A program made the translations under genes and the position numbers. Source: Sphingomonas sp. 28-63-12 (GTDB taxonomy: Bacteria; Pseudomonadota; Alphaproteobacteria; Sphingomonadales; Sphingomonadaceae). From it: DNA of 64,000 nt. This document shows positions 23,523-52,805 of this stretch, one piece after another. The stretch's first letter is position 1, and the number at the start of each line of letters is the position of its first letter. Location: the NCBI GenBank assembly GCA_002281535.1, contig NCGD01000017.1:93015-157014 (forward strand), given 5' to 3'. A model generated the notes under the pieces. It ran no database searches. It saw nothing but the letters and a program-made list of their open reading frames with translations, and had not been told where the DNA came from.

Positions 23523-25820
23523 TCAGTGGCGTCCATCGGTGTTCAGCACCAGCGTGGATTCGATATGGTGCCGGAGATCCTCGAAACTGAGCCAGTTCGG
23601 GCGCAGCTTGCGATCGGAAAGCAGTTGGAACTGATCCATGCCGTGGCGCGAGGCCGGGTCTTCGCTGATGCCATAAGCGAGCGCCGAATAGCTGCTGCCG
23701 CTACCATAATCGACGACATAGAGCCGGGTTTGCGCGAACAGTGTGTATTTGCGGCCATCGGCATCGGGCTGCGGCGAAAAGCCGTTGAGCATCAGCGTCT
23801 GTTCCGACGAACTGAACCCCAGGCCGCCGATATCCGCCCAGAACCGGTCGGGCAGGTCGAAGCCGGCCAGGAACGCTGCGCCATTGGCCGGGAGCGAGTG
23901 GCCCGGCGTGCCCAGCCGATAGAGCGCGCCATAGCCATGATCAATTCCCCCCAGCACCTTGACCAGATTGTCGCGTACGCTGGCCAAACATTCTACCAGC
24001 AGGGCGGTATCCGGCGCGGATAGCGCTTCACCGTGATCGATCGCAATGACGATCCGGTCGACATCGGCGGGATGAGTGAGCGCGAGCATCTGTCGAAACT
24101 CAGCGAAGTAAAGCGCGGCCCGGGAGTCGCGATTGAAGTCGCCATTGAACTCGCCAAGTGCGGCGAGCATTTTGACCAGATCGGCCGGTGCGTCGGTCGG
24201 CAGGTCGTTGGCCAGTCGTGCGAATACCGGCTGCCAGCGATCGGTGCCGACAAGATGGGTATCGAGCGCGACCTTGACGGCGTCATCGATCGTGAAACCA
24301 GTCGATCCCGCAAGCAATTCAAGCGCGCGGCGCTGGCGCGTGTTATTGCGCTGATAGACGTTGAACCCGAAATAACGCGGATAGCGTGCCCAACGGCGAT
24401 CGTCATCGTCGGGCCAGAAGCTGGGCGGCGGGATATTCGAGAGCGAGAAATATTGCTGCGGGGGCCGCTCGACAAAGGGCAGGTCGCGGAGCGGGTGGAT
24501 GCCGCGCCATAATGTGGCGCTGCTGTTGCCCGGCGACGGGGCGGCCGGATCGGCGGTACCGTCTCGGAGCGGCTGGCGCGCGGGCCTGAGCCAGAACGAT
24601 CCCTCGTCAGGCGTGGAGACCAGATAATTGTCCCAGGCATACCAGTTGTTACCGGCGAACCCGGCCTTCAGCCCCGCGAGCGTGCGCTGAACCGCCAGAT
24701 TGCGTTCGGGATCGAGCGACAGACCCTGACGGCCGGCCATCGCCCAGCTCCAAGCATAGGCGGTGTTGCCTTGGCGCGCCATGACGGGGGTACGGACGCC
24801 ATTATGGTGGGTCAGCTCGACATCGTAAGCGATGGGCGTTTCGCCGCGGACGGGAATCTCATAATGCTCCACCGTCATGCGGCGGCGCGTGCCGTCGAAG
24901 CGATAGGCGCGGGGATCATCAGGCTCGGTGGTCACGGCGTAGCAGGTCGCATTGACGTCGTCCGACGTCGTCGCCCCCCACGCGGCATGCGGGGTGAATC
25001 CCTCGCCGTAAATCTGCGAGGGCAGGGTGAAGTTGAGATAGTCGAGCGCGCCCGCTTTGAGGTGAACGGCATAATAGCTCGGCCCGAGCGTGAACGGGTC
25101 CCAATGCGGATCGCTCAGGTGGATCGTTTTGCCACTGGCGGTATGGCGGCCCCAGACCGACCAGAGATTGGACTGGCTCGGCGTGGCTGCGGCCGGCGTC
25201 TCTGCGCCATGACATCCGCGCGCCGATTGCGCTTCGCCGGCGCGCCACGCCATCAGCAGGGCTGGTTCGATTTGATCCGGGCGCAGCCCCCAGGCTGGGC
25301 GCTCGGCGGGATGCTCGATCAGATAGTGACGAAACCCGGCGACGAATGCGGACAGATTGGCCCGATTTTGCGGGCTGAGCCTGGCAAAATTGGCGCGGGC
25401 AGCCGGCAGCCAGGCCATCGCGCGGGCAAGCTTGTCTGAAGCGATCGGATCGGTGATGAAATGCGAGGCCCAGGAGCGTTCGACCTGGCCGATAAAGCTG
25501 TCATCAAAGCCATTGGCGCGGGTGACCACCTTGCGACCGAAGGTGGCTGCAAGGTCGCCCCGGATCATTACCCAGTGGAGCATCGTCTGACGCATCCGAT
25601 CATGCGCCAGCGCATAACCGAAACCGAAAAAGCCATCGGCTTCGCGGGCGGCATAGACATGCGGCATGCCATAGTCGTCGCGGATGATGGTCACCTTGCC
25701 ATTGGTGAGGCGCGGTGGTGCCCCGTCGGCGTTCGAGCGGGGCGCCGCGACGGCAAGGCTGCTGCTGCAGACGATGATGGCGGTCCAGCCGGCAACCCCG
25801 CGCATACTGGCATTTGGCAT
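23523..25820 (-). CDS. Penicillin acylase-family Ntn hydrolase (copy 1)
   Basis: 765 residues with a secretion signal (GWTAIIVCSSSLAVAAP). The small-chain region has the family line VTIIRDDYGMPHVYAAREADGFFGFGYALAHDRMRQ. The precursor is expected to cleave itself before Ser217 in PSQSNLWSVWGRHTASGKTIHLSDPHW, making Ser the N-terminal nucleophile; an Asn-containing NNWYAWDN further on fits the oxyanion residue. Members hydrolyse amides such as penicillins, N-acyl amino acids and acyl-homoserine lactones. The substrate here is unknown. Tail-to-tail with astA (3-base gap) and divergent from the tautomerase gene across a TGTGATCACA palindrome. Confidence 0.92.
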   Translation of the reverse strand: MPNASMRGVAGWTAIIVCSSSLAVAAPRSNADGAPPRLTNGKVTIIRDDYGMPHVYAAREADGFFGFGYALAHDRMRQTMLHWVMIRGDLAATFGRKVVTRANGFDDSFIGQVERSWASHFITDPIASDKLARAMAWLPAARANFARLSPQNRANLSAFVAGFRHYLIEHPAERPAWGLRPDQIEPALLMAWRAGEAQSARGCHGAETPAAATPSQSNLWSVWGRHTASGKTIHLSDPHWDPFTLGPSYYAVHLKAGALDYLNFTLPSQIYGEGFTPHAAWGATTSDDVNATCYAVTTEPDDPRAYRFDGTRRRMTVEHYEIPVRGETPIAYDVELTHHNGVRTPVMARQGNTAYAWSWAMAGRQGLSLDPERNLAVQRTLAGLKAGFAGNNWYAWDNYLVSTPDEGSFWLRPARQPLRDGTADPAAPSPGNSSATLWRGIHPLRDLPFVERPPQQYFSLSNIPPPSFWPDDDDRRWARYPRYFGFNVYQRNNTRQRRALELLAGSTGFTIDDAVKVALDTHLVGTDRWQPVFARLANDLPTDAPADLVKMLAALGEFNGDFNRDSRAALYFAEFRQMLALTHPADVDRIVIAIDHGEALSAPDTALLVECLASVRDNLVKVLGGIDHGYGALYRLGTPGHSLPANGAAFLAGFDLPDRFWADIGGLGFSSSEQTLMLNGFSPQPDADGRKYTLFAQTRLYVVDYGSGSSYSALAYGISEDPASRHGMDQFQLLSDRKLRPNWLSFEDLRHHIESTLVLNTDGRH

Positions 25821-25897
25821 CGTCGCTTGCTCTCCCCATGTCAGCCGGGGGCGCCGCGCCCCGCCACCATGATCTCGTCGTCATCGTAACGAATGTT

Positions 25898-25913
25898 ACT
25901 TGTGATCACAAGT
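25898..25913. promoter_or_regulatory. Perfect 16-bp palindrome ACTTGTGATCACAAGT
   Basis: It lies in the 187-bp divergent gap between acylase copy 1 and the tautomerase/D-threonine-aldolase-like genes. Its central 10 bases TGTGATCACA are identical to those of the palindrome at 45554-45567, which is directly downstream of a GntR gene. Probable operator of that regulator or a close relative. Confidence 0.65.
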
Positions 25914-26007
25914 ATTGAGACCTATGCAATCCCGATCGCATGCCGGTGGTGTCGGGGAGCCGTCGTCGCCATGATGCGACGACTGGGTCGACGAAACGGA
26001 GTTTGCC

Positions 26008-27593: not shown

Positions 27594-27616
27594 GGCGTGG
27601 CCAACACATGACGCGA

Positions 27617-31722: not shown

Positions 31723-31761
31723 ATGCGGCATCATTGCTGCGCGTGAATGGGGGAAGGCGAT

Positions 31762-33621
31762 ATGAAAAGGCTGGCGGCAGCGATCGGGGCAGTCTGGTTG
31801 GTGATAGGCGCGGGAATCGCCGCGCCACCGCCACCCGCCGACCGCGCGCCGCCTGAATCCATGCCAGCACTGATCGATGGCATGATTGCGTCGCAACTGG
31901 CGGAACATCATATCGCCGGCGCGACCGTCTCGGTCGTGCAGGACGGCAAGCTGATCTTCGCCAAGGGCTATGGATTTGCCGATATCGACAAGCGCGTGCC
32001 GGTGGTCGCCGATCGCACGCTGTTCCGGATTGGATCGATCAGCAAGGTATTCACGACGATCGGCACGATGCAGCTCGCCGAAGCCGGCAAGGTCAAACTC
32101 GACGCCGATGTCAGCCGCTATCTCGATTTCAGCTTTCCGCGCGTTTCCAAGGCACCGCTCACGCTCGCTCATTTGATGACGCATACTGCTGGCTTTGCCG
32201 AGAGCCTCAATGGCCTGCTCGTCCAGTCACCCAAGAACGTGCTGCCGATCGGCGACATGATCAAGCGGACGCTGCCGCCGCTGGTGCGCGCGCCCGGCAC
32301 CGCGCCGAGCTACTCCAATCACGGCATTGCGCTCGAAGGCTATATCATCGAGCGCGCCGCGGGCGAGCCGTTCGACGATTATATGGACCGCCACGTTTTC
32401 ACCCCGCTTGGCATGCTGCATTCGAGCTTTCGGGAGCCGTTGCCGCCCGCGCTTGCTGCCAACCTTTCGCACGGACACCGCGAAGAAAATGGCCGGCTGG
32501 TGCCGCAGCCTTTCGAACTTACCAATATCGCGCCCGCCGGATCGATCAGCGCCACCGCCACCGACATGGCGCGCTTCATGATCGCCAACCTCCAGCTCGG
32601 CACGATCGACGCCGCGCAAATCCTGCGCCCCGAGACGGCAAAGACGATGCAGGCCTGCCATTATCGCACCGATCCGCGCGCAGCCTGCATGGCATATGGC
32701 TTTTACCACCAGAAAATGGCCGGGCATGACGTGATCGCGCATGACGGCGGCACCAATTTGTTCCTGAGCAACATGGTGCTGGTGCCTGACGAGCAGTTCG
32801 GCGTGTTCGTTTCCTATAACTCACCCGGCGGCGGCAAGGTGCTTGATGAACTCCCGCGTGCGTTGATCGCGCAGCGCTTCGGAACGATTGCGCCGCCTAC
32901 GGTGAAGGCGACCAATTTTGGCGACGATATCGCTGATTATGCCGGTGCCTATCGAACCACACGCCGAATGGCGCAGGGTTGGCTGAAGATTTTGGGCTTG
33001 CCGACCAGCGATATCTCCGTGGCCGGCCCGTACATGCTGAAATTCGGCGATCGGCGCTGGCGGCAAGCAGGGCCAGGGTTCTTTCGCGATGCCTCGGCGA
33101 TGCCGAGCGACGATTCGCTGATCTTCCACCGCGATGCCGCCGGCAAGGTCGATGCCTTTTATCTCGGCAATTTGCCGCCGGTGAAGCTCGAGCGCATAGC
33201 CGATTACAGCAGCCTGGGCGTCGCGCAGGCGATTTTGGTCGGCTTTACGCTGGCCGCGCTGCTGTTCGTGATCTGGGCAATGGTCGCGCGCCGCCGCTGG
33301 TGGGCGTCGCCGCTGCGCGGGGCGGTCATGGCGGTTTTGGCGAGCATCGCCTTCACGCTGGCCGGCGCCATCACCTTGGTTGTCGTCGCCAGCGATCTTG
33401 AATCGGCCGGCTATGGCCCGCCCCCGGCGGCGCAGGCGATGATCGCACTGTTCGATCTGGGCGCTTTGGCCTGGAGCGGGGCAGTCATCTTGATGGTGCG
33501 CGGTTGGCGGGTGTCCGTCCTGGGTTGGCGCAGTCGTGCGGTGATGATCACCGCGCTCGCCACGGCACTGCCGCTGTTCGCCTTGCTCGGCGGCTGGGAC
33601 CTGCTCGGCGTCGCCCGCTGA
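31762..33621 (+). CDS. Membrane-tethered serine hydrolase, class C beta-lactamase family (tandem copy 1)
   Basis: 619 residues from ATG 31762; the in-frame ATG at 31747 is rejected because the ribosome-binding site GGGGAAGG overlaps it. Signal peptide, then the hydrolase domain with Ser92 in SISK (FRIGSISKVF), YSN in APSYSNHG and HDG in IAHDGGTN. After about residue 400 comes a lipocalin-like stretch and then three to four membrane helices (LVGFTLAALLFVIWAMV; VLASIAFTLAGAITLVVV; MITALATALPLFALLGG). So the active site faces the periplasm while the tail sits in the inner membrane. Substrate unknown; D-peptidase or esterase. Confidence 0.86.
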   Translation: MKRLAAAIGAVWLVIGAGIAAPPPPADRAPPESMPALIDGMIASQLAEHHIAGATVSVVQDGKLIFAKGYGFADIDKRVPVVADRTLFRIGSISKVFTTIGTMQLAEAGKVKLDADVSRYLDFSFPRVSKAPLTLAHLMTHTAGFAESLNGLLVQSPKNVLPIGDMIKRTLPPLVRAPGTAPSYSNHGIALEGYIIERAAGEPFDDYMDRHVFTPLGMLHSSFREPLPPALAANLSHGHREENGRLVPQPFELTNIAPAGSISATATDMARFMIANLQLGTIDAAQILRPETAKTMQACHYRTDPRAACMAYGFYHQKMAGHDVIAHDGGTNLFLSNMVLVPDEQFGVFVSYNSPGGGKVLDELPRALIAQRFGTIAPPTVKATNFGDDIADYAGAYRTTRRMAQGWLKILGLPTSDISVAGPYMLKFGDRRWRQAGPGFFRDASAMPSDDSLIFHRDAAGKVDAFYLGNLPPVKLERIADYSSLGVAQAILVGFTLAALLFVIWAMVARRRWWASPLRGAVMAVLASIAFTLAGAITLVVVASDLESAGYGPPPAAQAMIALFDLGALAWSGAVILMVRGWRVSVLGWRSRAVMITALATALPLFALLGGWDLLGVAR

Positions 33622-35571: not shown

Positions 35572-37014
35572 CTAACGCCGGCCCGCCAGCCGCGAATGGC
35601 GGCGGCCATAACCGGCATAGATCACGCCGCCGATCGCCATCCACACCACCAGCCTGATCCAGGTCGCCCCGGGCAGGCTGACCATCATGTACAGGCAAAT
35701 CCCGATGCCGACTGCCGCTACCGGATACAGCCAGGGGGCACGGAAGCTGCGCGGCAACGCCGGTGACAGACGGCGCAGCACCACCACCCCGCCGCAGACG
35801 ATGACAAAGGCGAGCAGGGTCCCGATCGACACCAGTTCACCGAGCATCTCGATTGGCAACACGCCCGCTACCAGCGCCGCGCCGATACCGACGAACCAGG
35901 TCGAAAAGACGGGTGTGCCGGTGTGCTCATCGACGCGGGCGAAGCGCGCCGGCAACAGCCCGTCATGCGCCATGATGTAGAAGATGCGCACCTGACCATA
36001 GAGCGTCATCAGGATCGCCGAGGCGAGCCCGAGCACCGCGCCGATCCCGATCACTGGCCGCAGCCAGGCGAGCGACGGCCCGACCTGCGCGATCGCTGCA
36101 TAGACCGGCGAGGCGACGCCAAGCGTTTGATAGGGAGCGATGCCGGTCAGCACCAGGCACATCGCCACATACAGGATCGTGCAGATTGCCAGCGCCGCGA
36201 GGATCCCGCGCGGAATGTCGCGCCCTGGGTTGCGGGCCTCCTGCGCGCTGGTCGAGACCATGTCGAAACCGATATAGGCAAAAAACACCACCCCGGCCGC
36301 GCGGACCACGCCGCTCCAGCCAAAGCTGCCGAAATCGCCGGTATTGGCGGGCACGAACGGGTGCCAGTTGGCGGTGTTGATGTGCATCGCGCCAAAGCCG
36401 ATCACCAGCAGGATCACGACCAGTTTGATCGTCACGACCAGCGCATTGACGATCGCCGAAGATTTGACGCCGCGGTGCAACACGCCGGTCAGCGCAAGGA
36501 TCGACAGCATTGCCGGCAGGTTGACGATGGCCCCGCTCCAGCGCCAGCCGCCCTGACCATCGCCGTTAAGCGGTGGCTGGACGAGGAGCGCGGGCAGATG
36601 CACGCCGAAGTCACCGAGCAGCGAAACCAGATAAGCCGACCAGCCGACCGCGACGGTCGAGGCGGAAAACAGATATTCGAGCACGAGCGTCCAGCCGATC
36701 GTCCAGGCAGCGATCTCCCCCAGCGTGACATAGGTATAGGTATAGGCGCTGCCGGCGACCGGGATCATCGACGCCAACTCCGCATAGCAGAGCGCGGTGC
36801 ACAGACAGGCGATGGCGGCGATCAGGAAGGAGAGGGTGACGGCGGGGCCGGCATAATTGGCCGCGGCGGTGCCGGTCAGCACGAAAATCCCTGCGCCGAT
36901 CGTCCCGCCGACGCCCATCAGCGTCAGATCCCAAAAGCCGAGATGGCGGTGCAGCCGGCTTTCCGCCAGCGTGCCGCCAATGTCGGCCAGCGTCTTCTTC
37001 GACCATAACCCCAT
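35572..37014 (-). CDS. APC-superfamily amino acid permease (cationic amino acid transporter type)
   Basis: 480 residues from ATG 37014, chosen because GGGAGGA lies 9 bases upstream; an in-frame ATG at 37086 is unlikely. About 12-13 membrane spans with the family start LHRHLGFWDLTLMGVGGTIGAGIFVLTGTAAANYAGPAVTLSFLIAAIACLCTALCYAELASMIPVAGSAYTYTY. This CAT/YfnA-type subfamily takes up amino acids by proton symport. Given its neighbours it may import amino acids released by the periplasmic hydrolases. Divergent from a TetR gene across AT-rich motif C. Confidence 0.92.
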   Translation of the reverse strand: MGLWSKKTLADIGGTLAESRLHRHLGFWDLTLMGVGGTIGAGIFVLTGTAAANYAGPAVTLSFLIAAIACLCTALCYAELASMIPVAGSAYTYTYVTLGEIAAWTIGWTLVLEYLFSASTVAVGWSAYLVSLLGDFGVHLPALLVQPPLNGDGQGGWRWSGAIVNLPAMLSILALTGVLHRGVKSSAIVNALVVTIKLVVILLVIGFGAMHINTANWHPFVPANTGDFGSFGWSGVVRAAGVVFFAYIGFDMVSTSAQEARNPGRDIPRGILAALAICTILYVAMCLVLTGIAPYQTLGVASPVYAAIAQVGPSLAWLRPVIGIGAVLGLASAILMTLYGQVRIFYIMAHDGLLPARFARVDEHTGTPVFSTWFVGIGAALVAGVLPIEMLGELVSIGTLLAFVIVCGGVVVLRRLSPALPRSFRAPWLYPVAAVGIGICLYMMVSLPGATWIRLVVWMAIGGVIYAGYGRRHSRLAGRR

Positions 37015-37055
37015 GCCGCTATTCCTCCCTGCCGGCAGGCCTGATGATCGCCGGT

Positions 37056-37080
37056 CAATAACATTACGATGATAATAATT
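37056..37080 (-). promoter_or_regulatory. 25-bp AT-rich motif, copy C
   Basis: Read on the minus strand: AATTATTA, six bases (TCATCG), TAATGTTATTG. It lies 42 bases upstream of the permease ATG, in the divergent gap with the TetR gene at 37178. It matches copy A at 19 of 25 positions. Directly beyond it is the half-palindrome CTTGTGAT (about 37079-37086), resembling half of the 25898 operator. Confidence 0.5.
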
Positions 37081-42466: not shown

Positions 42467-43450
42467 TCATCCCCAAAGCGCCGGTTCCGGAAATTCCATG
42501 GCCCCGTGCTTATATTTCAGGCCGTGGAGACGATCGTTGGTGTGGAGCAGTGGGCCGTCGAGATCGACGAACCCTGCCTGCTGGGCAATGATCGCCGCAG
42601 GGGCCATTGCCAAAGAAGTGCCGGCCATGCAGCCGATCATGATGCCAAGCTGGTGCTGCCGCGCTGCGGCGGCCACGGCGAGCGCCTCGGTCAGACCGCC
42701 GGTCTTGTCGAGCTTGATATTGACGAAATGATAGAGTCCCGCGAGCGCCGCGACTGAGGCGCGATCGGTGCAGGATTCGTCCGCCGCCAGCGGGACTGCG
42801 TGGCGATAGGCGCGCAATGCGCCATCATTGCCCTTGGCGAGTGGCTGTTCGATCAGCGCAACGCCCAGCGTCGCCAGTTCGGGTGCAAGCGCGTCGAGCT
42901 GGGCAAAGCTCCAGGCCTGGTTGGCATCGACGATCAGCCGAGCCGCGGGGCAGATGTCATGAACGATCCGGATCAGCTCGATATGGCTGTCACCGTCGAC
43001 CTTTATCTTGATCAGCGGCCAGTCCGTCATCGTCAGGGCCTTCGCCCAGACCTCGTCGGGCGTCCCGATGCCGATCGTCGATGCGGTAGTCACGGGCAGC
43101 GCGTTGGTGAGCCCGGCGGTTTGCCAGGCGGGGACTCCGCTGGCTTTGGCCTCAAGGTCCCACAGCGCGCAATCGAGCGCGTTGCGCGCGCCGCCAGCAG
43201 GGAGCACATCGAGCAGGGCGGTGCGATCCAGCCCTGTCGGCAGGGTGCCGCCAAAGGCCTCGATCTGCGCGACCATGTCACCGATCAGATCGCCGTCATA
43301 ATCGACCCCCGCTGCTTCGCCGCGCCCGATATGGCCAGTTGCATCGCGCAGTTCGACGACGATGACGTCGAGCGCATCGGCGACCCCGCGCGCAATGCGA
43401 AACGGGGTTTGATAGTCCCAGCTTTCGGTGGTGACGCTGCAGCTGATCAT
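42467..43450 (-). CDS. dgcA: Enolase-superfamily epimerase, DgcA type (N-acetyl-D-glutamate racemase / dipeptide epimerase)
   Basis: 327 residues of the mandelate-racemase/dipeptide-epimerase fold: N-terminal capping domain (SWDYQTPFRIARG), then ARNALDCALWDLEAKASGVP, catalytic Lys in LIKIKVDGD, metal ligands Asp in LIVDANQAW, Glu in LIEQPL, Asp in ADESC, second Lys in NIKLDKTGGL. Its ATG overlaps the dgcN stop (ATGA). DgcA has been described as the racemase that turns N-acetyl-D-glutamate into the L form after DgcN acetylates D-glutamate. The pairing supports that role over a generic L-Ala-D/L-Glu epimerase, which remains possible. Confidence 0.85.
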   Translation of the reverse strand: MISCSVTTESWDYQTPFRIARGVADALDVIVVELRDATGHIGRGEAAGVDYDGDLIGDMVAQIEAFGGTLPTGLDRTALLDVLPAGGARNALDCALWDLEAKASGVPAWQTAGLTNALPVTTASTIGIGTPDEVWAKALTMTDWPLIKIKVDGDSHIELIRIVHDICPAARLIVDANQAWSFAQLDALAPELATLGVALIEQPLAKGNDGALRAYRHAVPLAADESCTDRASVAALAGLYHFVNIKLDKTGGLTEALAVAAAARQHQLGIMIGCMAGTSLAMAPAAIIAQQAGFVDLDGPLLHTNDRLHGLKYKHGAMEFPEPALWG

Positions 43451-44466
43451 GACATCGCCTCCGTCGCGGTGGCGAGCATTGTGTCGGCGAGGATATCGGC
43501 GCCGGTGCGGATTGGATCGAATACCGGCAGGCCATATCGATCGGCATAATCGCCCATGATTGCAAAGGCGGTATCAGCGGGGAATTTTGCGGTGTTGAGG
43601 CTGATCCCGACAAAACGCGCAGCCGGATTGGTCAGCCAAGCCGCCTCCCGGTAGCGCGCCATCGCGACTGCCAGATCGACGATTGGAAAATCGGGATAGC
43701 CCTCGATATGCCGCCGCGCCGGATCGTGGCACAGCACCAGCGCATCGGGTTGCGAGCCGTGGAGCAACCCTAATGTCACTGCCGCATAGGCCGGGTGGAA
43801 CAAGGCGCCCTGGCCCTCGATCACGTCCCAGTGATCGGCGGCGGCATCGGGCGACAACGCCTCAGCCGCACCGGCGACAAAATCGGAAACAACCGCGTCA
43901 ATCGGTATCCCGCTGCCTGCGATCATGATCCCGGTTTGGCCGGTGCCGCGAAAATCGGCGGCGATCCCGCGCGCCTTCAGCGATTTGGTGATCGCCAGCG
44001 CGGTGTATTTCTTGCCCAGCGCGCAATCGGTACCAACTGTCAGCAGCCGCTGGCCGCTGCGCTTTCGCCCGGTGCCGACGGCAAATCGCGTGCCCGGATG
44101 GCGAATGTCGTGCAGCGTCACGCCGTGATGTGCGGCGTGGACCGCCAGTCCGGGAACATCGCTCAGCCGCTGATGCATGCCGCTGACGATATCGAGCCCG
44201 GCCTCGACCGCGGCGAATAGGCTGGGGTACCATGTCTCGGGCAGCGCGCCGCCGAACGAGGCAACCCCGATCACCAAAGAGCCGATGCCGGCTGCGCGCG
44301 CCTCGGCCGCGTTCATCTCGGGCACGCCGAGATCGATCGCCGCCCCCGCCAGTCGCATTTGCCCCACAACATCATTGGGGCACCAATCGCGCAAGCCGAA
44401 GGCGGTTTTCGCCAAGGTCGATGAATCGGCATCGGCCAGAAAGACGAGATAGGGCTTGCGGAGCAT
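43447..44466 (-). CDS. dgcN: DUF1611 protein, DgcN-type D-glutamate N-acetyltransferase
   Basis: 339 residues from ATG 44466, where AAAGGAC lies just upstream and the protein begins LRKPYLVFLADADSSTLAKTAFGLRDWCP as in the family; TTG/ATG starts near 44574-44577 would add a low-quality extension. The P-loop-like LLTVGTDCALGKKYTALAITKSLKARG and DFRGTGQTGIMIAGSGIPIDAVVSDFVAGAAE are DUF1611 signatures. DgcN is reported to acetylate D-glutamate, with DgcA acting next. Gene order and coupling fit a D-glutamate (or D-amino acid) route. Confidence 0.85.
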   Translation of the reverse strand: MLRKPYLVFLADADSSTLAKTAFGLRDWCPNDVVGQMRLAGAAIDLGVPEMNAAEARAAGIGSLVIGVASFGGALPETWYPSLFAAVEAGLDIVSGMHQRLSDVPGLAVHAAHHGVTLHDIRHPGTRFAVGTGRKRSGQRLLTVGTDCALGKKYTALAITKSLKARGIAADFRGTGQTGIMIAGSGIPIDAVVSDFVAGAAEALSPDAAADHWDVIEGQGALFHPAYAAVTLGLLHGSQPDALVLCHDPARRHIEGYPDFPIVDLAVAMARYREAAWLTNPAARFVGISLNTAKFPADTAFAIMGDYADRYGLPVFDPIRTGADILADTMLATATEAMS

Positions 44467-44573
44467 GATTGTCCTTTTGGGTTCGTTGGAGACGGTCGAC
44501 GGGGTGACAGCCTCATCGCCGCGACCATGATCGGGGGTGGCGGGCTGGGCCATGAAGGGCAGGCGCGCGCGCA

Positions 44574-45509
44574 TCAAAAGCCGACCGCGTCGCCGCCCTT
44601 CAGATCAAGCATCGCGCGCGCCTCGGCAGGGGTGGCGATGCTCATGCCCAGCCGCTCGATAATTTCGCGGATTCGCGTGACCTGTTCGGCATTGCTGACC
44701 GCGAGCCGGCCGCGATCGATATAAAGGCTATCCTCGAGCCCGACGCGGACATTACCGCCCATCACTGCAGACATCGTCAGCATCGGCATCTGGTGCTTCC
44801 CGACCGCGATGCACGACATCAGATAATCGTCACCGAACAATTTGTCGGCGGTCTGGCGTAGATGCGTCAGATGATCCGGATCGGCGCCGATCCCCCCCAT
44901 GACCCCCAGAATGAACTGGATGAAATAGGGCGGCTTTAGCCGGCCCTCGCGGACGAAATGCGCGAGCGTGTAGAGATGGCCGACATCATAGCATTCGAAT
45001 TCAAAGCGGGTGCCGTATGCGTCGCCGACCTCGCTAATGATGCGGTCGATCATTCGGAAAGTATTGGGATAAATCAGGTCATCGGTCTGGGCGAGATAGG
45101 GCTGTTCCCAGTCATGCTGCCATTCGGTGTAGCGATTGGCGAGGTGGAAGATGCCGAAATTCATCGTCCCCATATTGAGCGACACCAGCTCTGGCTGGGT
45201 CCGGTGTGCGGGTGCCAGTCGATCCTCCAGAGGCATCCCCAGCCCGCCGCCGGTAGTGACGTTGATCACTGCATCGGTCGATTGCTTGATACGCGGGAGG
45301 AACGCCATGAAGGTGTCGGGGTTCTGGCTCGGCTTGCCGGTTGCCGGGTCGCGGGCGTGGAGGTGAAGAATGGCCGCGCCGGCTTCGGCGGCGGCAATTG
45401 ACTGATCGGCGATTTGGTCGGGCGTGATCGGCAAATGCGGCGACATGGTCGGCGTGTGGACGCCCCCCGTGACCGCGCAGGTAATGATAACCTTGTCCGA
45501 CTGCCGCAT
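44574..45509 (-). CDS. Beta-keto acid cleavage enzyme (BKACE, DUF849 family)
   Basis: 311 residues beginning DKVIITCAVTGGVHTPTMSPHLPITPDQIADQSIAAAEAGAAILHLHARDP, with the metal-binding HLH pair and the family VINVTTGGG and LEDSLYIDRGRLAVSNAEQVTRIREIIERLG ends. BKACE enzymes condense a beta-keto acid with acetyl-CoA to give acetoacetate and a new acyl-CoA; the founding member acts on 3-keto-5-aminohexanoate in lysine fermentation. First gene of the operon to dgcN, dgcA, the receptor and hydrolase-VanX; a perfect palindrome lies 45 bases upstream of its start. Confidence 0.93.
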   Translation of the reverse strand: MRQSDKVIITCAVTGGVHTPTMSPHLPITPDQIADQSIAAAEAGAAILHLHARDPATGKPSQNPDTFMAFLPRIKQSTDAVINVTTGGGLGMPLEDRLAPAHRTQPELVSLNMGTMNFGIFHLANRYTEWQHDWEQPYLAQTDDLIYPNTFRMIDRIISEVGDAYGTRFEFECYDVGHLYTLAHFVREGRLKPPYFIQFILGVMGGIGADPDHLTHLRQTADKLFGDDYLMSCIAVGKHQMPMLTMSAVMGGNVRVGLEDSLYIDRGRLAVSNAEQVTRIREIIERLGMSIATPAEARAMLDLKGGDAVGF

Positions 45510-45584: not shown

Positions 45585-46301
45585 TCAATGCATTTCGGCG
45601 ACGAGCTCCTTTGGTGCGGTTTCACCGGTCCGCTCACCAACCCTGGCGCGGAACAGCCGCGCCGCGTTGGCGATGAGCAGCCGGATCGACTCGCGCGCCG
45701 CGATCGCGTTGTTCGCGGCCATCGCCTCGATGACATCGTCGTGCATCGCAAATTCGCTGTTGAGTGCCGACCGGTCCATGCTGTCGATGAACAGATTGAG
45801 ATAGGGGCCCGATTGCAGCCACAATGTATCGATCATCATCAGCAGGATTTCACTGTCGCAGGCCGCATAGACCGCGGCGTGGAATTGCTGGTTCATCGCC
45901 AGCACCTCCGCAAAATTGCCGGCCTTGAGCGCCTTGTGGATCCCGTCATTGGCTTCTCGAATTGAGACGAGCCCGGCCTTGTCGCAACGTTCGGCGGCGC
46001 GGGCCGCCGCTTCGGGCTCAAGCATCTGGCGGATCCGGTAGAGTTCGTCGAAGGTCCTAAGCTGCATCAATGGCACGCGGACGCTGCGGCTGTTGGGCAT
46101 TTCCAGCGCGCGCTCGGACACGAGCCGCCGCACCGCTTCGCGCGCCGGCATTAAGCTGGTGCCCAGTGCCTCGGCAACACCGCGCAGCGTTACCGCTTCG
46201 CCTGGCTTGTATGCGCCGGTCATCAGCGCCTTGCGCAGTTCCTGATAGGCGCGCTCGTGGAGCGTCGTCACATCGATGCGTTGCAATTTGGCCATGGTCA
46301 T
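45585..46301 (-). CDS. GntR-family regulator, FadR/FCD subfamily
   Basis: 238 residues from ATG 46301 (upstream ATGs at 46385 would run into the MFS gene). Winged helix at the N-terminus (LHERAYQELRKALMTGAYKPGEAVTLRGVAEALGTSLMPAREAVRRLVSERALEMPNSRSVRVP) and an FCD ligand domain with metal-type residues (RIRQMLEPEAAARAAE ... HAAVYAAC ... MHDDVIEAM). Members sense organic acids and bind palindromes. Lying between the MFS gene and the BKACE operon, each with TGTGTGAT-type sites, it is the expected local regulator. Confidence 0.92.
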   Translation of the reverse strand: MTMAKLQRIDVTTLHERAYQELRKALMTGAYKPGEAVTLRGVAEALGTSLMPAREAVRRLVSERALEMPNSRSVRVPLMQLRTFDELYRIRQMLEPEAAARAAERCDKAGLVSIREANDGIHKALKAGNFAEVLAMNQQFHAAVYAACDSEILLMMIDTLWLQSGPYLNLFIDSMDRSALNSEFAMHDDVIEAMAANNAIAARESIRLLIANAARLFRARVGERTGETAPKELVAEMH

Positions 46302-46341
46302 GATTGTTGCCCGTTCCTGTCCTGTTTCATTTTCGCTCAAT

Positions 46342-47655
46342 TCAATTGCCGAGCTTGCGCGCTCGATCAGCATAGGGCTTGGCAAACAGCCAAGTCACTA
46401 GCGCGCCGATTACCAAGCCGGGCATACAGACCAGTGCCACCGCATCGATCACCGCTTCGGGGCGCCCGAATAGCTGATCGGTGACCAGCGCGATGCTGCT
46501 CGGCCCCGCACCGATCCCGATCAGATTGGCGACCAGCAAGAACAGCGACGCCGTCCGCGCCCGGCTGTCGGGTTCAGTGATCGCCTGCAGGGCGACCGGC
46601 GCCAGCACGCCGACCGAGCCGGTTGCAAAGGTCATTGCACCGAGCAGCAGGATCACAGCGGCAGCGCTGTCGACCACCACCAGCGACCCCACCGCGATTG
46701 CGCCGATCACGCAGCTGGCCGCCAGCATCGGCAGCAATTGGTCGACCCCACCGCGCCGGCGCGCGCGATCGCCCAACCAGCCGAACAGCACGGTGCCGGC
46801 AATCCCGAGCACCACTTGGGTGCCGCCAAGCCATGTCCCGGCCGAAACAGCATCCCAGTGATAGACCCGGGTCAGCACCGCTGGCCCCCAGGCGCCGGCG
46901 CCGTAGAGCGTCAGGTTCATCAGAGGCACGGCGATGAACAGCGGCGCAAAGGCGCCCCGTTCCCGCCAAAGCGCGACGATCAGCGACTTCAGTGTGTCAT
47001 TACCTGCTGTTCGGGGTCCTGGCGACACGGGTGGCTCGATGATTCGGCTGATCGGCAGGGCGGTCAGCAAGGTCAGGCCGCCGAGCAGCAACAGCGCTAC
47101 GCGCCATGGGGCGAGGGCACCGCCCGTGCCGGCCAGATCGATCACGGCGGCACCAGCCAGCAGCGCGATTCCGGCGCCGGCGGCACCGCCAACCACAAAC
47201 ACGCTCATCGCCCGCGATCGCTGCTGCGGAGGGTATAGATCAGTCACCAGCGCATATGCAGTCGGCGTCAACGCGGCCTCACCGAGCCCCACACCCATTC
47301 GCCCGATGAAGAACTGGATAAAGCCGGTCGCCAGCCCGCAGCCTGCAGTCATCGAGCCCCAGATCACGATTCCCGCGATCAAAACCCCCTTGCGCGACCA
47401 GCGATCCGCCAGCCAGGCGATGGGAACACCGGCGGTTGTATAAACAATCGCAAAGGCGAACCCGATCAACAGGCTGACCTGCGTATCAGTGATCCCGAGA
47501 TCGGCTCGGATCGGATCGATCAGCAACGCGGGGATCATCCGGTCGATGAAGGACAACAGATAGGCGCCGGCAAGGATGACCAGGGTCAGATGCGCGCCTG
47601 GCAGGGCCGCGCCCGTCTCTTGGGATGGCCGCGTGCCGATGATGGGTCCCGTCAT
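46342..47655 (-). CDS. MFS transporter
   Basis: 437 residues, 12 predicted spans. Helix 1-4 pattern LVILAGAYLLSFIDRMIPALLIDPIRADLGITDTQVSLLIGFAFAIVYTTAGVPIAWLADRWSRKGVLIAG, the Spns/ACS-type layout common in proteobacterial organic-anion and glycoside importers. Forty bases upstream of the GntR gene and divergent from acylase copy 2. Probably takes the periplasmic breakdown product through the inner membrane. Confidence 0.9.
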   Translation of the reverse strand: MTGPIIGTRPSQETGAALPGAHLTLVILAGAYLLSFIDRMIPALLIDPIRADLGITDTQVSLLIGFAFAIVYTTAGVPIAWLADRWSRKGVLIAGIVIWGSMTAGCGLATGFIQFFIGRMGVGLGEAALTPTAYALVTDLYPPQQRSRAMSVFVVGGAAGAGIALLAGAAVIDLAGTGGALAPWRVALLLLGGLTLLTALPISRIIEPPVSPGPRTAGNDTLKSLIVALWRERGAFAPLFIAVPLMNLTLYGAGAWGPAVLTRVYHWDAVSAGTWLGGTQVVLGIAGTVLFGWLGDRARRRGGVDQLLPMLAASCVIGAIAVGSLVVVDSAAAVILLLGAMTFATGSVGVLAPVALQAITEPDSRARTASLFLLVANLIGIGAGPSSIALVTDQLFGRPEAVIDAVALVCMPGLVIGALVTWLFAKPYADRARKLGN

Positions 47656-47718: not shown

Positions 47719-47783
47719 GGTGCCAGAGGCGTTGCAGGTGGTGCACCGTCGATCGGGTGCGAAAGCAGTTCGGGGAGGACAGC

Positions 47784-50033
47784 ATGCGGAACAAGTTCGA
47801 TATCGCGGCGATCATGCTGTTTATCCCGGCCTTAGCGGCGGCAACACCAGCGGCTGCGGGCCCTGTGGCCCGCGCGCCGGCAGGGTCGGTCAATCTCTAT
47901 CGCGACATCAATGGCGCGCCGCATCTCTATGCCGATCGTGAGGCGGATGCCTATTGGGGGCTTGGCTATGCGATGGCGGAGGACCGGCTGAGCGGCATCT
48001 TGCTCTTCTATCTGGCCCTGCGCGGCGATCTCGCGGCGACCTTCGGCGCCGGGCCGTTAGGTGATAAATCCGGGGTCGTCGGGGCCGATAGCGGCGTTGT
48101 CGATGACACCGTCGCCTTTGACAAGCAAATGCGCCAAATGCGGCATCTCGCCGATGCGCGGACCAATTTCGCAACGCTGCCCCGCGCTGTGCGCGCCGAT
48201 ATGACCGCCTACATTGCAGGGATAAAACGCTACATGGCGGATCATCCAGAAAAGGTGCCAGTCTGGGCGCCGCCGCTTGAGGCAGCTCTGCCGCTCGCCG
48301 CCGGGAGCTTCCTTAATCTCGGCGCGGTCGGCAGCGATATTGGCGTTTGCAATGCCGTCCTTGCCAAGGCGGGCGTCACCGCCCTGGCGAGTTCGATCGG
48401 GCGGGCCACCGGCATGAGTGGATCCAATATTTGGGCGCTAGCACCCAACCGGACCGCCGATAAGGCCACGGTCTTCGAATCGGACTCGCACAGCCCGATC
48501 GCCCTGTTCGGGAGCTTTTTCTACGGCGCGCGGATCAACAGCCCGACAATGAATGCCTGGTTGCTTGACATGACCGGTATGCCGATGGGTCTCAAGGGCC
48601 ATAACGCGCATTTCGCCTGGGGCTGGTCAGAAGGCCCGCGCCGCCCGTCCGATTGCGTCGCGGTACACACCGAAGCCGGTGCGCCGCTGCGCTACCGGGT
48701 CGATGGCAAGAGGCGCCGCATGGTGTCGATCCCCTATCGTATCATGGTCAAGGGCGCGCCCGCGATCACGGGGAGGTTTGATTATGTATGGCACAACGGC
48801 GTGCTTTCACCGATCGCGGGGCGCGTCGGCCAAACCGCCTATGCGGTCAGCTCGACCTATATGGGTCGAGCTGGCCGCGCCCATGTCGCCTATCGCGGGC
48901 TGCTGACTGCGCGGCGCTGGGCTGACATCGATGTTGCGGTGGCCCGGCAGGAGCTTTATCCCGCCAATCTCATCATTGCCGGGGCTGATGGATCGATCCG
49001 TTATATCCGGCCGGGGCGCAATCCGGCGCGCGCGACCGTTCCGCCGATCGGCCAACCCGTCGACGGTAATCGCGGCACAAGCGCCTGGCAGGGAATCAGG
49101 CCGATCGGCGCTGCCGTGCAGCTGCGCGATCCGAGCGAAGGCTATCTGACAAACGAAAATGTCAGCCCCGACATGATGTTTGCTGCGCAGCATCTGCGGC
49201 CCGGCGACTATCCTGCTGATTTCGGTTTTGATCCGGGCCAGACCGACACCCGCCAACGGCGAGCGATCGAATTGCTCGGCGGCGACCGGGTGATCGACTG
49301 GCGTGACACGCTCGATATTGTGTTCGATGACAAGGTGTTCGGCAGCGAGCGGTGGAACCACGAACTTGACCAGGCCGTGCGCGAAGCGGCCGAGCCGAGT
49401 CAACCGGATGCGGCGCGGTTCATTGCGGCGCTGATCGCGTTTGACGGGCATTTTTCGCCCGAATCGTCGGCGGCGCTGTATGTCGCGCAGTGGCGTGATG
49501 AAGTGCGTGAGGCCGATCCAAAAGTGGCGTTGGCGATCGAACGCGCGCTGGCAACAGATACCCCGCTTGATGCAGCACAGCGCGCCGTATTGCTTACCGC
49601 AGCGCGCCGGGCAGCAGCGCGACAAGCGGCAGGTCTGAGCGGCTTCAATCGACGCTTCGGCGATGTCTATCGTGTCGGCCGTTCCGCGCCCGGTGCGCCG
49701 ACGCGGGGAATGACGCTGCTTGCCTTGCCCGGCGACCGCGAAGAAGTCACCGAATTCGGGTCGTTGTGGTCGTCCATTTATGGCCCGGCCGATGCGGCGG
49801 GGCGGCATTATTCCTATTCGGGCAGTCGAATGCCGTTCCTCGTGCAGTTCACCAGGCCGATCCGCTCGTATAGTCTGCCAGTCTGGGGAATCAGTGATAA
49901 CCCGGACTCGCCCCATTACAGCGATGGATCACCCCTCGTCGCAAAGGGCGAGATGCGGTCCAATTATTTTGAACCCGCGCAGCTGGCGGGCGCGATCCGA
50001 TCGGTGCGGACATTGCGCACGGGCGTGCGCTAA
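47784..50033 (+). CDS. Penicillin acylase-family Ntn hydrolase (copy 2)
   Basis: 749 residues from ATG 47784 (GGGGAGGACAGC directly upstream; ATG 47757 lies before this box). Signal peptide FDIAAIMLFIPALAAATPAAAG. Family line VNLYRDINGAPHLYADREADAYWGLGYAMAEDRLSG. The self-cleavage site is at Ser214 in GSNIWALAPNRTAD. It differs clearly from copy 1, so it is not a recent duplicate. Its stop overlaps the next start (TAATG). Divergent from the MFS gene. Confidence 0.92.
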   Translation: MRNKFDIAAIMLFIPALAAATPAAAGPVARAPAGSVNLYRDINGAPHLYADREADAYWGLGYAMAEDRLSGILLFYLALRGDLAATFGAGPLGDKSGVVGADSGVVDDTVAFDKQMRQMRHLADARTNFATLPRAVRADMTAYIAGIKRYMADHPEKVPVWAPPLEAALPLAAGSFLNLGAVGSDIGVCNAVLAKAGVTALASSIGRATGMSGSNIWALAPNRTADKATVFESDSHSPIALFGSFFYGARINSPTMNAWLLDMTGMPMGLKGHNAHFAWGWSEGPRRPSDCVAVHTEAGAPLRYRVDGKRRRMVSIPYRIMVKGAPAITGRFDYVWHNGVLSPIAGRVGQTAYAVSSTYMGRAGRAHVAYRGLLTARRWADIDVAVARQELYPANLIIAGADGSIRYIRPGRNPARATVPPIGQPVDGNRGTSAWQGIRPIGAAVQLRDPSEGYLTNENVSPDMMFAAQHLRPGDYPADFGFDPGQTDTRQRRAIELLGGDRVIDWRDTLDIVFDDKVFGSERWNHELDQAVREAAEPSQPDAARFIAALIAFDGHFSPESSAALYVAQWRDEVREADPKVALAIERALATDTPLDAAQRAVLLTAARRAAARQAAGLSGFNRRFGDVYRVGRSAPGAPTRGMTLLALPGDREEVTEFGSLWSSIYGPADAAGRHYSYSGSRMPFLVQFTRPIRSYSLPVWGISDNPDSPHYSDGSPLVAKGEMRSNYFEPAQLAGAIRSVRTLRTGVR

Positions 50034-51667: not shown

Positions 51668-51685
51668 ATTATAGCGGTAATAATT
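51661..51685 (-). promoter_or_regulatory. 25-bp AT-rich motif, copy B
   Basis: Read on the minus strand: AATTATTA, six bases (CCGCTA), TAATTTATTTG. It overlaps the stop codon of the DMFase-like gene and lies 43 bases before the Gfo/Idh/MocA start. It resembles copies A and C less strongly in its last third. Confidence 0.42.
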
Positions 51686-51728
51686 ATGGCCTGATAGGCC
51701 GGGAGTCCGCAAAGCTTCAGAGGCGCTA

Positions 51729-52805
51729 ATGATTATCGACGACAGTGCAGCGAACGATCGAGCAATCCGGTTGGGATTGATTGGTCTCGGCGGCGTGGGC
51801 GCGCTTCACTTCGCAGCCTATCAGCAGTCGTTGCGGGTCAACGTGGTCGCCGCTGCCGATGTCGATCGGTCACGAGCCGCTCTGCTCGCTGGAACGCCAA
51901 CCGCGTTTCACGATGACTACCGCTCGTTATTGGCGCGCGATGATCTCGATGCGGTCTGTATCCTGACGCCCGCCGCAACGCATGAAACCATCGCCATCGA
52001 CTGCGCGGCTTCGGGTCGTCCGATGCTCTGCGAAAAGCCACTTGCCGTGGACCTCGATGCGGTCGACCGGATGATCGCCGCGTGCAGCGCCGCCAAAGTG
52101 ATGTTGTTCTACGGTGCCTCCTATCGCTACTTGCCTGCGATCATGACGGCGCGGGCGATGATCGCTGCGGGGGCTATTGGCGACGTGCTGGTAATGCGCG
52201 AGCAGGTGATCGGCGGGGCGGGCCTGGCGCAGTATCGCGAACTCGGGCCGTTGCATTATCCACCTGGCGGACCAGGCGGATCGGGCCTCGGGCTGATGGA
52301 CCACGGTATCCATCTGATCGACGTGTTCGGCTGGATGTGCGGCGCGCCGGTCATCGCGTCGAGCGGCGCCGGCAATATCGCCGGCGCGCTGCCGCGCCCA
52401 GAATGGCTGAGCATGACGTTCGCCAATGGTGCTTTAGGGCTGCTGACCTATCATGAGGGCAGCTTTGGCACCGAATTGCCGGCCGAGGGGCTGTTCACCA
52501 ACGGCGCTGGATGGGACGCTAATGGTTTTGTCGCGGCCGGTGATTGGTCGGCCACTCCGGGGGTCATCCATGTCCATGGTACCACCGGCGCGCTGCGGAT
52601 CGCCCATTATGCCAACCAGTTGATTCATTTCGACGCCGAGGGCCCGCACCAGATCGCGCTGACCGGGCGGCCGAGCCCGCTCCACTTCGCAACGCAGATC
52701 GACGCCTTTGCCGATGCGCTGATGGGGAAGGGGGGTGAAATCTCCGCCAGCGTGGGCCGGCGAGCACTTCGCATTGCCCTGACTGCCTATCCGGATAATG
52801 CGTGA
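51729..52805 (+). CDS. Gfo/Idh/MocA-family oxidoreductase
   Basis: 358 residues. Rossmann start IRLGLIGLGGVGALHFAAYQQSLRVNVVAAADVD, the family EKP motif (RPMLCEKPLAVDLDAVDRMI), then the C-terminal substrate domain (GGSGLGLMDHGIHLIDVFGWMCG). Members oxidise sugar, inositol or sugar-amide carbons with NAD(P). It follows the acylase/DMFase-like pair by 61 bases and may belong to the same unit or to motif B. Substrate not predictable. Confidence 0.9.
   Translation: MIIDDSAANDRAIRLGLIGLGGVGALHFAAYQQSLRVNVVAAADVDRSRAALLAGTPTAFHDDYRSLLARDDLDAVCILTPAATHETIAIDCAASGRPMLCEKPLAVDLDAVDRMIAACSAAKVMLFYGASYRYLPAIMTARAMIAAGAIGDVLVMREQVIGGAGLAQYRELGPLHYPPGGPGGSGLGLMDHGIHLIDVFGWMCGAPVIASSGAGNIAGALPRPEWLSMTFANGALGLLTYHEGSFGTELPAEGLFTNGAGWDANGFVAAGDWSATPGVIHVHGTTGALRIAHYANQLIHFDAEGPHQIALTGRPSPLHFATQIDAFADALMGKGGEISASVGRRALRIALTAYPDNA

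What the first reader, a model, noticed from the sequence alone, without database searches (positions are those of the whole stretch)
23523..52805. Clustered arsenal for taking apart amide-linked, probably D-amino-acid-containing molecules
Seen: two penicillin-acylase-family hydrolases, a VanX fusion, two tandem serine hydrolases (a further one lies at 17 kb), a D-threonine-aldolase-like enzyme, dgcN-dgcA, a DMFase-like protein, a TonB receptor, an APC permease and an MFS transporter, all within 30 kb. Known: each family acts on amide or peptide bonds, D-amino acids or their uptake. Inference: the set forms one nutrient-scavenging or antibiotic-catabolising system for compounds such as lipopeptides, beta-lactams or wall fragments. 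I know of no described pathway with this combination.
Basis: partly seen in the sequence, partly recalled or inferred. Interest (0 to 1): 0.7.

Follow-up and report, generated by a model that had tools for sequence, protein, structure and literature searches.

The report
D-amino-acid peptide scavenging gene island
This stretch of a probable Sphingomonas genome is a patchwork of nutrient-scavenging genes whose core belongs to a gene neighbourhood, repeated in many related bacteria, that probably imports and dismantles peptides containing D-glutamate and D-alanine, most likely leftovers of other bacteria's cell walls.

Summary
The genes named are real; one frame is not (27590-29326 lies antisense to a FAD oxidoreductase gene). 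The reading as one pathway is partly supported. The centre (31.7-47.7 kb) is a local form of a recurrent neighbourhood: dgcN, dgcA and PF00144 serine hydrolases, often with a TonB receptor, an M19 dipeptidase and a deacylase-like amidohydrolase. A related serine hydrolase lies near dgcN in 38 of the 80 best named loci (23 of 26 Sphingomonadales copies with adequate flanks) and 6 of 20 held-out loci, against 0 of 20 control stretches. Serine hydrolase-VanX fusions lie within 15 kb of dgcN in 5 of 7 other genomes, which points to peptidoglycan stem peptides. BKACE and its MFS transporter have a different recurrent context; BKACE-dgcN linkage is not significant (2 of 80). The other flanking genes show little linkage to dgcN; acylase relatives occur in 4 of 20 distant dgcN loci (p = 0.053). 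Here BKACE, dgcN, dgcA, TonB receptor and fusion still form one tight operon. The window lacks several usual partners and its own DgcN type mostly stands without hydrolases. Beta-lactam catabolism is unlikely; lipopeptide breakdown is a live minority reading. No activity was tested.

The parts
31747..33621 (+). PF00144 serine hydrolase A, export-like N-terminus and four C-terminal hydrophobic segments
   Evidence: Pfam 224 bits; SISK/YSN motifs and hydrophobic segments; its nine best relatives among held loci are all in dgcN loci, which make up 160 of the 240 held
33653..35509 (+). PF00144 serine hydrolase B, 42% identical to A, 31 bp downstream of it
   Evidence: Pfam 222 bits; gap; nine best relatives in dgcN loci (same caveat)
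35572..37086 (-). APC amino-acid permease
   Evidence: Pfam; two relatives among held loci, 51% beside dgcN in L005 and 29% in L168
37178..37792 (+). TetR/BetI-type regulator
   Evidence: Pfam
37799..40147 (-). Fusion with export-like N-terminus: PF00144 serine hydrolase + VanX/DdpX-type M15 dipeptidase
   Evidence: Pfam PF00144 217.6 bits, PF01427 102.1 bits; motifs SVSK, YSN, SRHNRGAAVD, EWWH; alignment to VanX 1r44; only M15 match in the draft genome
40164..42437 (-). TonB-dependent receptor
   Evidence: Pfam; closest relative among held loci (36%) is in L018, which also holds a serine hydrolase-VanX fusion and dgcN
42467..43450 (-). dgcA, N-acetyl-D-Glu racemase / L-Ala-D/L-Glu epimerase family
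   Evidence: NCBIfam NF042940 407.6 bits, cut-off 400; PDB relatives 4gfi and 1jpd, an L-Ala-D/L-Glu epimerase
43447..44577 (-). dgcN (DUF1611), N-acetyltransferase family
   Evidence: NCBIfam NF041892 449 bits, cut-off 480; PDB relative 7xrj, deposited under another name; GTDCALGKK P-loop-like motif
44574..45509 (-). BKACE, beta-keto acid cleavage enzyme
   Evidence: NCBIfam NF053538 519.7 bits, cut-off 430
45585..46385 (-). GntR/FCD regulator
   Evidence: Pfam
46342..47655 (-). MFS transporter, first gene of the minus-strand run
   Evidence: Pfam; its five best relatives among held loci are in BKACE loci
47757..50033 (+). Penicillin-amidase-family acylase 2 (flanking, divergent module)
   Evidence: Pfam 281 bits; no match at E <= 1e-40 in 384 other genomes of the class sample, two candidates scored per genome
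50033..51667 (+). DMFA2_C amidase-like protein (flanking module)
   Evidence: Pfam 240 bits; 16 of 385 class genomes counting its own; BKACE nearby in 4 of 16 fetched contexts
51729..52805 (+). Gfo/Idh/MocA oxidoreductase (flanking module)
   Evidence: Pfam
17033..25820 (.). Flanking module: serine hydrolase, TetR, MFS_2, AMP-dependent ligase, AstA-like, penicillin-amidase-family acylase 1
   Evidence: Pfam; serine hydrolase, acylase, TonB, TetR, MFS_2 and ligase also stand together in L083
26373..31630 (.). No demonstrated link: D-threonine-aldolase-like, FAD oxidoreductase, LuxR, PALP, DUF2147
   Evidence: Pfam; few or no relatives near dgcN

Best explanation
A composite catabolic island. 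Its core, 31.7-47.7 kb, is a local form of a recurrent locus for using peptides that contain D-Glu, most likely peptidoglycan stem peptides. Inferred mechanism: (1) the TonB receptor brings peptides into the periplasm; (2) the exported serine hydrolases A and B and the hydrolase half of the fusion cleave bonds next to D-residues, and the VanX half splits D-Ala-D-Ala; (3) the APC and MFS carriers import the products; (4) DgcN N-acetylates D-Glu, DgcA racemises it to N-acetyl-L-Glu and a deacetylase encoded elsewhere gives L-Glu. Step 4 is the published pathway for the family, transferred by homology. Steps 1-3 are inferred from families, export-like N-termini, intact motifs and conserved neighbourhood. 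The flanks (acylase 1 with AMP-ligase; acylase 2 with DMFA2 and Gfo/Idh; BKACE with MFS and GntR) look like other amide- or acid-handling modules; only the BKACE one has joined the same operon.
For: Run MFS>GntR>BKACE>dgcN>dgcA>TonB>fusion with gaps -44, 75, -4, -4, 29, 16 bp. Serine hydrolase near dgcN: 38/80 named loci, 6/20 held-out loci, 0/20 control stretches, 2/17 BKACE/DMFA2 loci (Fisher 1.7e-5 and 0.010 against control). dgcA 58/80 and 15/20 against 0/20. Deacylase-like amidohydrolase 25/80, M19 25/80, YkvI-like membrane protein 31/80, against 0, 1 and 0 of 20. On a FastTree tree of DgcN the serine hydrolase trait changes at least 18 times over 128 copies with flanks, so linkage is not one inheritance. 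Fusion within 15 kb of dgcN in 5 of 7 other genomes, stand-alone VanX 0 of 8 (p = 0.007). S13 D-Ala-D-Ala carboxypeptidase near 12/20 more distant dgcN genes. VanX active-site residues kept. D-specific or DD-peptidases among the nearest solved structures.
Against: No activity or expression data. TonB linkage to dgcN is not significant (29/80 v 4/20, p = 0.13; 8/20 v 4/20, p = 0.15). On the tree none of the six trait pairs tested reaches 0.05 at the median: SH-TonB 0.07, SH-M19 0.13, SH-YkvI 0.22, SH-dgcA 0.5, SH-deacylase 0.69, SH-SDF 1. The window lacks the deacylase, M19, YkvI-like and XRE partners. Its DgcN is nearest to Stagnimonas, Parasphingopyxis, Gemmatimonas and Rhodoferax types; 2 of the 14 best named loci have a serine hydrolase (some are short). 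S13 is near 0 of 40, 0 of 20 and 0 of 80 of the closer dgcN sets, so that clue comes from another branch. DgcN misses its equivalog cut-off. One of 7 fusions (G148) sits far from any listed dgcN and the G135 contig shows none. PF00144 also holds esterases, and the top structural hit is one.
Confidence: 0.5

Rival explanations
1. Degradation of acylated D-amino-acid peptides (lipopeptides): the acylases remove the acyl group, the AMP-ligase and BKACE deal with the released acid, PF00144 enzymes act as DL-peptidases, and DgcN-DgcA, the D-threonine-aldolase-like enzyme and the nearby Tdh-Kbl pair use released D-Glu, D-(allo-)Thr and Thr.
For: All these families are within 17-58 kb. Nearest solved structures of the fusion include Lip3 DL-peptidase 9sn1. 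L083 of another genome has a deacylase-like gene, serine hydrolases, acylase, TonB, TetR, MFS_2 and ligase together. Distant acylase relatives near 4 of 20 more distant dgcN genes.
Against: In the 80 named dgcN loci acylase relatives are in 1, D-threonine-aldolase-like in 0, AMP-ligase relatives in 4 (AMP-ligase 3 of 20 control stretches). D-Ala-D-Ala dipeptidase has no obvious role. The acylases' nearest solved relatives are cephalosporin acylases, with the acyl-homoserine-lactone acylase PvdQ weaker.
Confidence: 0.17
2. No shared substrate: an accretion of unrelated catabolic modules in an accessory region, with dgcN-dgcA used only for free D-Glu.
For: Different best-relative contexts for the modules; most window genes are unlinked to dgcN elsewhere; 13 of 20 more distant dgcN loci and 3 of 5 named Burkholderiales copies lack the serine hydrolase.
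Against: Tight run of genes from MFS to the fusion; repeated fusion-dgcN and serine hydrolase-dgcN proximity.
Confidence: 0.28
3. Beta-lactam catabolism or resistance.
For: PF00144 fold, penicillin-amidase family and a DMFase-like protein in one region; acylases nearest to cephalosporin acylases.
Against: Class C beta-lactamase model scores 60.0, 109.7 and 110.4 against a cut-off of 415; dgcN-dgcA and VanX have no role in it.
Confidence: 0.03

Closest known systems
DgcN-DgcA D-glutamate pathway (ISME J 2023, 17:537-548; paper not held, known here from the reference list and passages of PMC12363236)
   Same: dgcN and dgcA adjacent and overlapping; DgcA passes its family model, DgcN comes close
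   Different: Here in one run with BKACE, a TonB receptor and an exported serine hydrolase-VanX fusion; DgcN below the equivalog cut-off
VanX/DdpX D-Ala-D-Ala dipeptidases (M15)
   Same: M15 domain with metal-ligand and catalytic residues kept (residue roles recalled)
   Different: Fused to a PF00144 domain with an export-like N-terminus; below both NCBIfam equivalog cut-offs
PF00144 D-peptidases (D-aminopeptidase 1ei5, alkaline D-peptidase 4y7p, R61 DD-peptidase, ClbP, Lip3 DL-peptidase)
   Same: Fold match of the fusion's first half and SxxK/YxN motifs
   Different: Serine hydrolases A and B carry four C-terminal hydrophobic segments; the third is fused to VanX; esterases match as well
BKACE (DUF849) loci
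   Same: Passes NF053538; MFS relative as in other BKACE loci
   Different: Placed directly upstream of dgcN; the HyuA-like partner seen in several BKACE loci is not among the window genes scanned
Polysaccharide utilisation loci (recalled)
   Same: TonB receptor, exported hydrolases, importers, catabolic enzymes and regulator clustered; 38 of 90 dgcN-bearing genomes have two or more dgcN match rows
   Different: Hydrolases and catabolic enzymes are for D-amino-acid amides, not glycans

Membership tests
DgcN-DgcA D-glutamate pathway | DgcN equivalog score (NF041892, cut-off 480) | tested here: not met
   449 bits; four other loci tested: 480.2, 496.1 and 506.3 met, 441.3 not met
DgcN-DgcA D-glutamate pathway | DgcA equivalog score (NF042940, cut-off 400) | tested here: met
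   407.6 bits
DgcN-DgcA D-glutamate pathway | Adjacent dgcN and dgcA | tested here: met
   4-bp overlap
DgcN-DgcA D-glutamate pathway | N-acetylation of D-Glu and racemisation | not testable with these tools
   needs enzymes
VanX/DdpX dipeptidase | M15 domain above Pfam cut-off (27) | tested here: met
   102.1 bits
VanX/DdpX dipeptidase | Zn ligands and catalytic residues (SxHxxGxAxD, ExxH, Arg; recalled) | tested here: met
   aligned to 1r44; motifs; invariant in the 6 fusions aligned
VanX/DdpX dipeptidase | Equivalog scores NF033115 (320) or NF007557 (176) | tested here: not met
   84.6 and 127.1 bits
Class C beta-lactamase | NF033085 cut-off 415 | tested here: not met
   60.0, 109.7, 110.4 bits for the fusion, A and B
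BKACE, 3,5-dioxohexanoate type | NF053538 cut-off 430 | tested here: met
   519.7 bits
Penicillin-amidase family | Pfam PF01804 cut-off (21.3) and Ser-Asn at the beta-chain start | tested here: met
   276.7 and 281.3 bits; SNLW/SNIW where solved beta chains begin
PvdQ-type acylase | NF051460 cut-off 950 | tested here: not met
   62.8 and 40.8 bits
Recurrent dgcN-serine hydrolase locus described here | dgcN, dgcA and PF00144 hydrolase within about 10 kb | tested here: met
Recurrent dgcN-serine hydrolase locus described here | Deacylase-like amidohydrolase, M19, YkvI-like or XRE partner | tested here: not met
   none in the window by the panel search

The most novel reading that the evidence does not exclude
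Sphingomonadales and several other orders carry families of 'D-peptide utilisation loci', analogous to polysaccharide utilisation loci, often in several paralogous copies per genome, each tuned to a different D-Glu-containing peptide. The window is one aimed at an acylated D-Glu peptide (a lipopeptide such as those with a 3-hydroxyacyl tail, D-Glu and D-allo-Thr; structure recalled), with acylases, DL-peptidases, D-Glu racemisation, D-Thr cleavage and acid catabolism in one region.
Probability: 0.13. Interest if true: 0.72.

Novelty: new variant of a known kind. Interest (0 to 1): 0.45.

Why it matters
Peptidoglycan peptides are a large, slowly used pool of D-amino acids, and how aerobic Gram-negative bacteria import and dismantle the peptide part from outside is, to my knowledge, poorly charted. 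A recurrent, sometimes multi-copy locus that joins exported serine hydrolases (here one fused to a VanX domain), often a TonB receptor, and the DgcN-DgcA pathway gives named genes to test in culturable Sphingomonas, Sphingopyxis and Sphingobium strains. It also suggests that VanX-type domains can serve nutrition rather than antibiotic resistance. I found no description of such a locus in the held papers by the searches (listings; passages of four papers); most subscription journals are not held.

Tried and rejected
One co-inherited 30-kb system: rejected for the flanks because in the named dgcN loci relatives of BKACE (2 of 80), penicillin acylase (1 of 80), D-threonine-aldolase-like, PALP and DMFA2 (0 of 80) are rare, while BKACE, MFS and DMFA2 have contexts of their own. 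Against this stands the acylase count in the more distant dgcN set (4 of 20; p = 0.053).

BKACE as a standard partner of dgcN: rejected (2/80 against 1/20 control, p = 0.90). BKACE-DMFA2 linkage (4 of 16 fetched contexts from 14 genomes, three of the four from one genus) is suggestive only (p = 0.11).

My first counts were inflated: the A set (34 of 40 with the serine hydrolase) was partly picked, and some windows shifted, knowing where serine hydrolases lay; L003/L004 and L013/L014 overlap and several genomes give more than one locus. I therefore rely on 20 held-out loci (6 of 20; not all remaining hits were fetched) and on the 80 named loci (38 of 80; the best 80 of 590 or more). The tree does include the A set and the window. 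The control is 20 arbitrary stretches of 15 of the same genomes, not matched for accessory regions.

Microcystin breakdown (mlr-like): considered because MlrB is of the PF00144 type (recalled) and MlrC-like proteins seem to occur in L120 and L153 (by eye). The passages seen of a paper on a microcystin degrader name no DgcN-type route (PMC9144602). No mlr search of this genome was made.

The structure model of the fusion was weak (mean pLDDT 66.6, six sequences; much of the VanX half under 50), so I use the fold search only for the serine hydrolase half. No fusion was found in 384 other genomes of the class sample at E <= 1e-90, two candidates scored per genome.

Literature seen: PMC12363236 and PMC10845958, passages including parts of the abstract; PMC9144602 and PMC13046382, passages; the rest search listings only. 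The DgcN-DgcA primary paper (PMC10030869) is not held. Recalled, from no call: 'D-glutamate deacylase' as a name for PRK09061, the label YkvI, HyuB as the name of a BKACE neighbour, 7xrj being a DgcN, the roles of Lip3 and MlrB, active-site residue roles, the lipopeptide structure and the PUL comparison.

In this check I corrected: the statement that the acylases are mutual best hits (only one direction was searched), the wording on acylase linkage, the missing S13 counts for the closer sets, and the unproven naming of the genus (now).

Full report
What is there. The window is the last 64 kb of a 157-kb contig of a 3.48-Mb draft genome. The frame 27590-29326(+) has no family match, whereas the opposite frame 27617-29245(-) is a CrtI/CrtO-like FAD oxidoreductase. 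PF00144 genes are concentrated here: 4 of 13 in the genome, with a simulated probability of 0.0006, or 0.028 if the tandem pair counts as one. The two acylases would not be unusual by position (2 of 5; P = 0.14); acylase 1 is by far the best match of acylase 2 in 150 relatives and 385 class genomes, the reverse not having been searched.

Anatomy. One minus-strand run, MFS > GntR > BKACE > dgcN > dgcA > TonB receptor > serine hydrolase-VanX fusion, has gaps of -44, 75, -4, -4, 29 and 16 bp, which suggests one transcript with coupled translation. A divergent run, acylase 2 > DMFA2 > Gfo/Idh, starts 101 bp away. Serine hydrolases A and B (42% identical) lie in tandem next to the APC permease. The fusion, hydrolases A and B and both acylases start with hydrophobic, export-like N-termini; the TonB receptor's looks so by eye but falls under the cut used. 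A and B also carry four C-terminal hydrophobic segments. Motifs are intact: SxxK/YSN in A, B and the fusion; SRHNRGAAVD and EWWH in the VanX half, which aligns with VanX 1r44 through those sites; GTDCALGKK in DgcN; Ser-Asn in both acylases. The 17-kb serine hydrolase shows SVTK but no YSN/YAN by the same pattern.

Does the set recur? DgcN matches 90 of 150 genomes of the relatives set (own included), 38 of them with two or more match rows, a few of which are split hits. I scanned dgcN neighbourhoods with a panel of family members. A serine hydrolase like A/B was found in 34 of 40 loci of a first set (partly chosen with knowledge of such hits), 6 of 20 held-out loci, 7 of 20 more distant dgcN loci, 0 of 20 arbitrary stretches of the same genomes and 2 of 17 BKACE/DMFA2 loci. 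In the 80 best named loci of a public genome collection it was 38 of 80, and 36 of the 59 dgcN copies with at least 6 kb on both sides: Sphingomonadales 23 of 26, unplaced Alphaproteobacteria 3 of 7, Burkholderiales 2 of 5, Lysobacterales 2 of 3, Cellvibrionales 2 of 2, Nevskiales, Steroidobacterales and Maricaulales 1 of 1 each, unnamed 1 of 3, Rhodospirillales 0 of 4 and six single copies without. dgcA was found in 58 of 80, an M19 dipeptidase in 25, a PRK09061-like amidohydrolase in 25 and a YkvI-like membrane protein in 31, against 0, 1, 0 and 0 of 20 control stretches. The M19 and amidohydrolase identities come; no family matched the YkvI-like protein, whose label is recalled. TonB receptors were found in 29 of 80 against 4 of 20, which is not significant. 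On a FastTree tree of DgcN the serine hydrolase trait changes at least 18 times over 128 copies, so the association was made or lost repeatedly. Its co-variation with TonB receptors is borderline (about 6.7 pairs with, 1.1 against, median p 0.07); for M19, YkvI, dgcA, deacylase and SDF the median p is 0.13, 0.22, 0.5, 0.69 and 1.

Why peptidoglycan. Serine hydrolase-VanX fusions occur in 7 of the 149 other relatives, and 5 lie within 15 kb of dgcN. A sixth sits with two serine hydrolases and an M19 dipeptidase on a 15.6-kb contig, of which I read 14 kb and saw no dgcN; the seventh has no dgcN near. Eight stand-alone VanX matches have no listed dgcN near, although seven are on other contigs, where a gap could hide it. 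Independently, a D-Ala-D-Ala carboxypeptidase of family S13 lies near 12 of 20 more distant dgcN genes, but near none of the closer ones (0 of 40, 0 of 20, 0 of 80). D-Glu together with D-Ala-D-Ala is, to established knowledge, the signature of the stem peptide. The draft genome has only this one M15 match.

What is separate. The closest relatives of the MFS transporter are in BKACE loci (19 of the 240 loci compared were fetched for BKACE or DMFA2), while those of the TonB receptor and of hydrolases A and B are in dgcN loci (160 of the 240, so this is weaker evidence). The operon thus looks like a join of two recurrent modules. Several BKACE loci carry their own TonB receptor, MFS and HyuA-like gene, most of them also a serine hydrolase; the HyuA-like protein tested, from L085, matches the caprolactamase alpha model below its cut-off. 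DMFA2 occurs in 16 of 385 class genomes including this one, and in 4 of 16 fetched contexts lies beside BKACE with a class III aminotransferase and a transporter. The AMP-ligase has a serine hydrolase within about 6 kb in 5 of 10 other places, a lower bound because the serine hydrolase list is truncated. In L083 a deacylase-like gene, serine hydrolases, an acylase, TonB, TetR, MFS_2 and a 54% identical ligase stand together. Distant acylase relatives (about 26% identical) are near 4 of 20 more distant dgcN genes, 0 of 40 and 1 of 20 of the closer sets, 1 of 80 named loci and 0 of 20 controls. These are leads that the flanks too are amide-scavenging modules, but they do not firmly tie them to dgcN.

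Conclusion. The core is best explained as uptake and dismantling of D-Glu-containing peptides, probably stem peptides, with L-Glu as the end product of a published pathway (PMC12363236 and PMC10845958 passages). Two things weaken this for the window itself: it lacks several usual partners, and its DgcN type mostly stands without a serine hydrolase (2 of the 14 nearest named loci). Membership of the DgcN equivalog is narrowly missed, so the exact substrate may differ.

Noticed in passing
59402-63694 (+): A 1430-aa RTX/FG-GAP repeat protein in a stretch of lower G+C (0.54-0.60) at the contig end.
   Followed up: no
55586-57831 (-): Threonine dehydrogenase (Tdh) and glycine C-acetyltransferase (Kbl) pair; relatives 61-62% identical lie beside dgcN-dgcA in L015 of a low-G+C genome.
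   Followed up: partly
22476-23519 (+): AstA-like succinyltransferase under the AstA equivalog cut-off (271.7 against 391), next to an AMP-ligase and convergent with acylase 1, whose distant solved relatives include a D-succinylase.
   Followed up: no
L225, L228, L229, L231: DMFA2 - class III aminotransferase - BKACE with an ABC transporter and LysR: looks like a route from an N-acyl beta-amino acid to a beta-keto acid (aminotransferase and BKACE models run on L231 only).
   Followed up: partly
L082, L085, L088, L089, L091: BKACE loci with HyuA/HyuB-type (caprolactamase-like) proteins, TonB receptor, SDR and MFS, and in all but L089 a small serine hydrolase (MFS for L082 is on the neighbouring stretch L081).
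   Followed up: partly
L041-L060: More distant dgcN loci have a different set: LysR, Na+/dicarboxylate-type symporter, deacylase-like amidohydrolase and S13 D-Ala-D-Ala carboxypeptidase.
   Followed up: partly
L004 12547-13653, and relatives in 31 of 80 named loci: An orphan membrane protein with the stretch YATGRELVEFF, without any Pfam or NCBIfam match, sits near dgcN in many loci; a candidate transporter.
   Followed up: no
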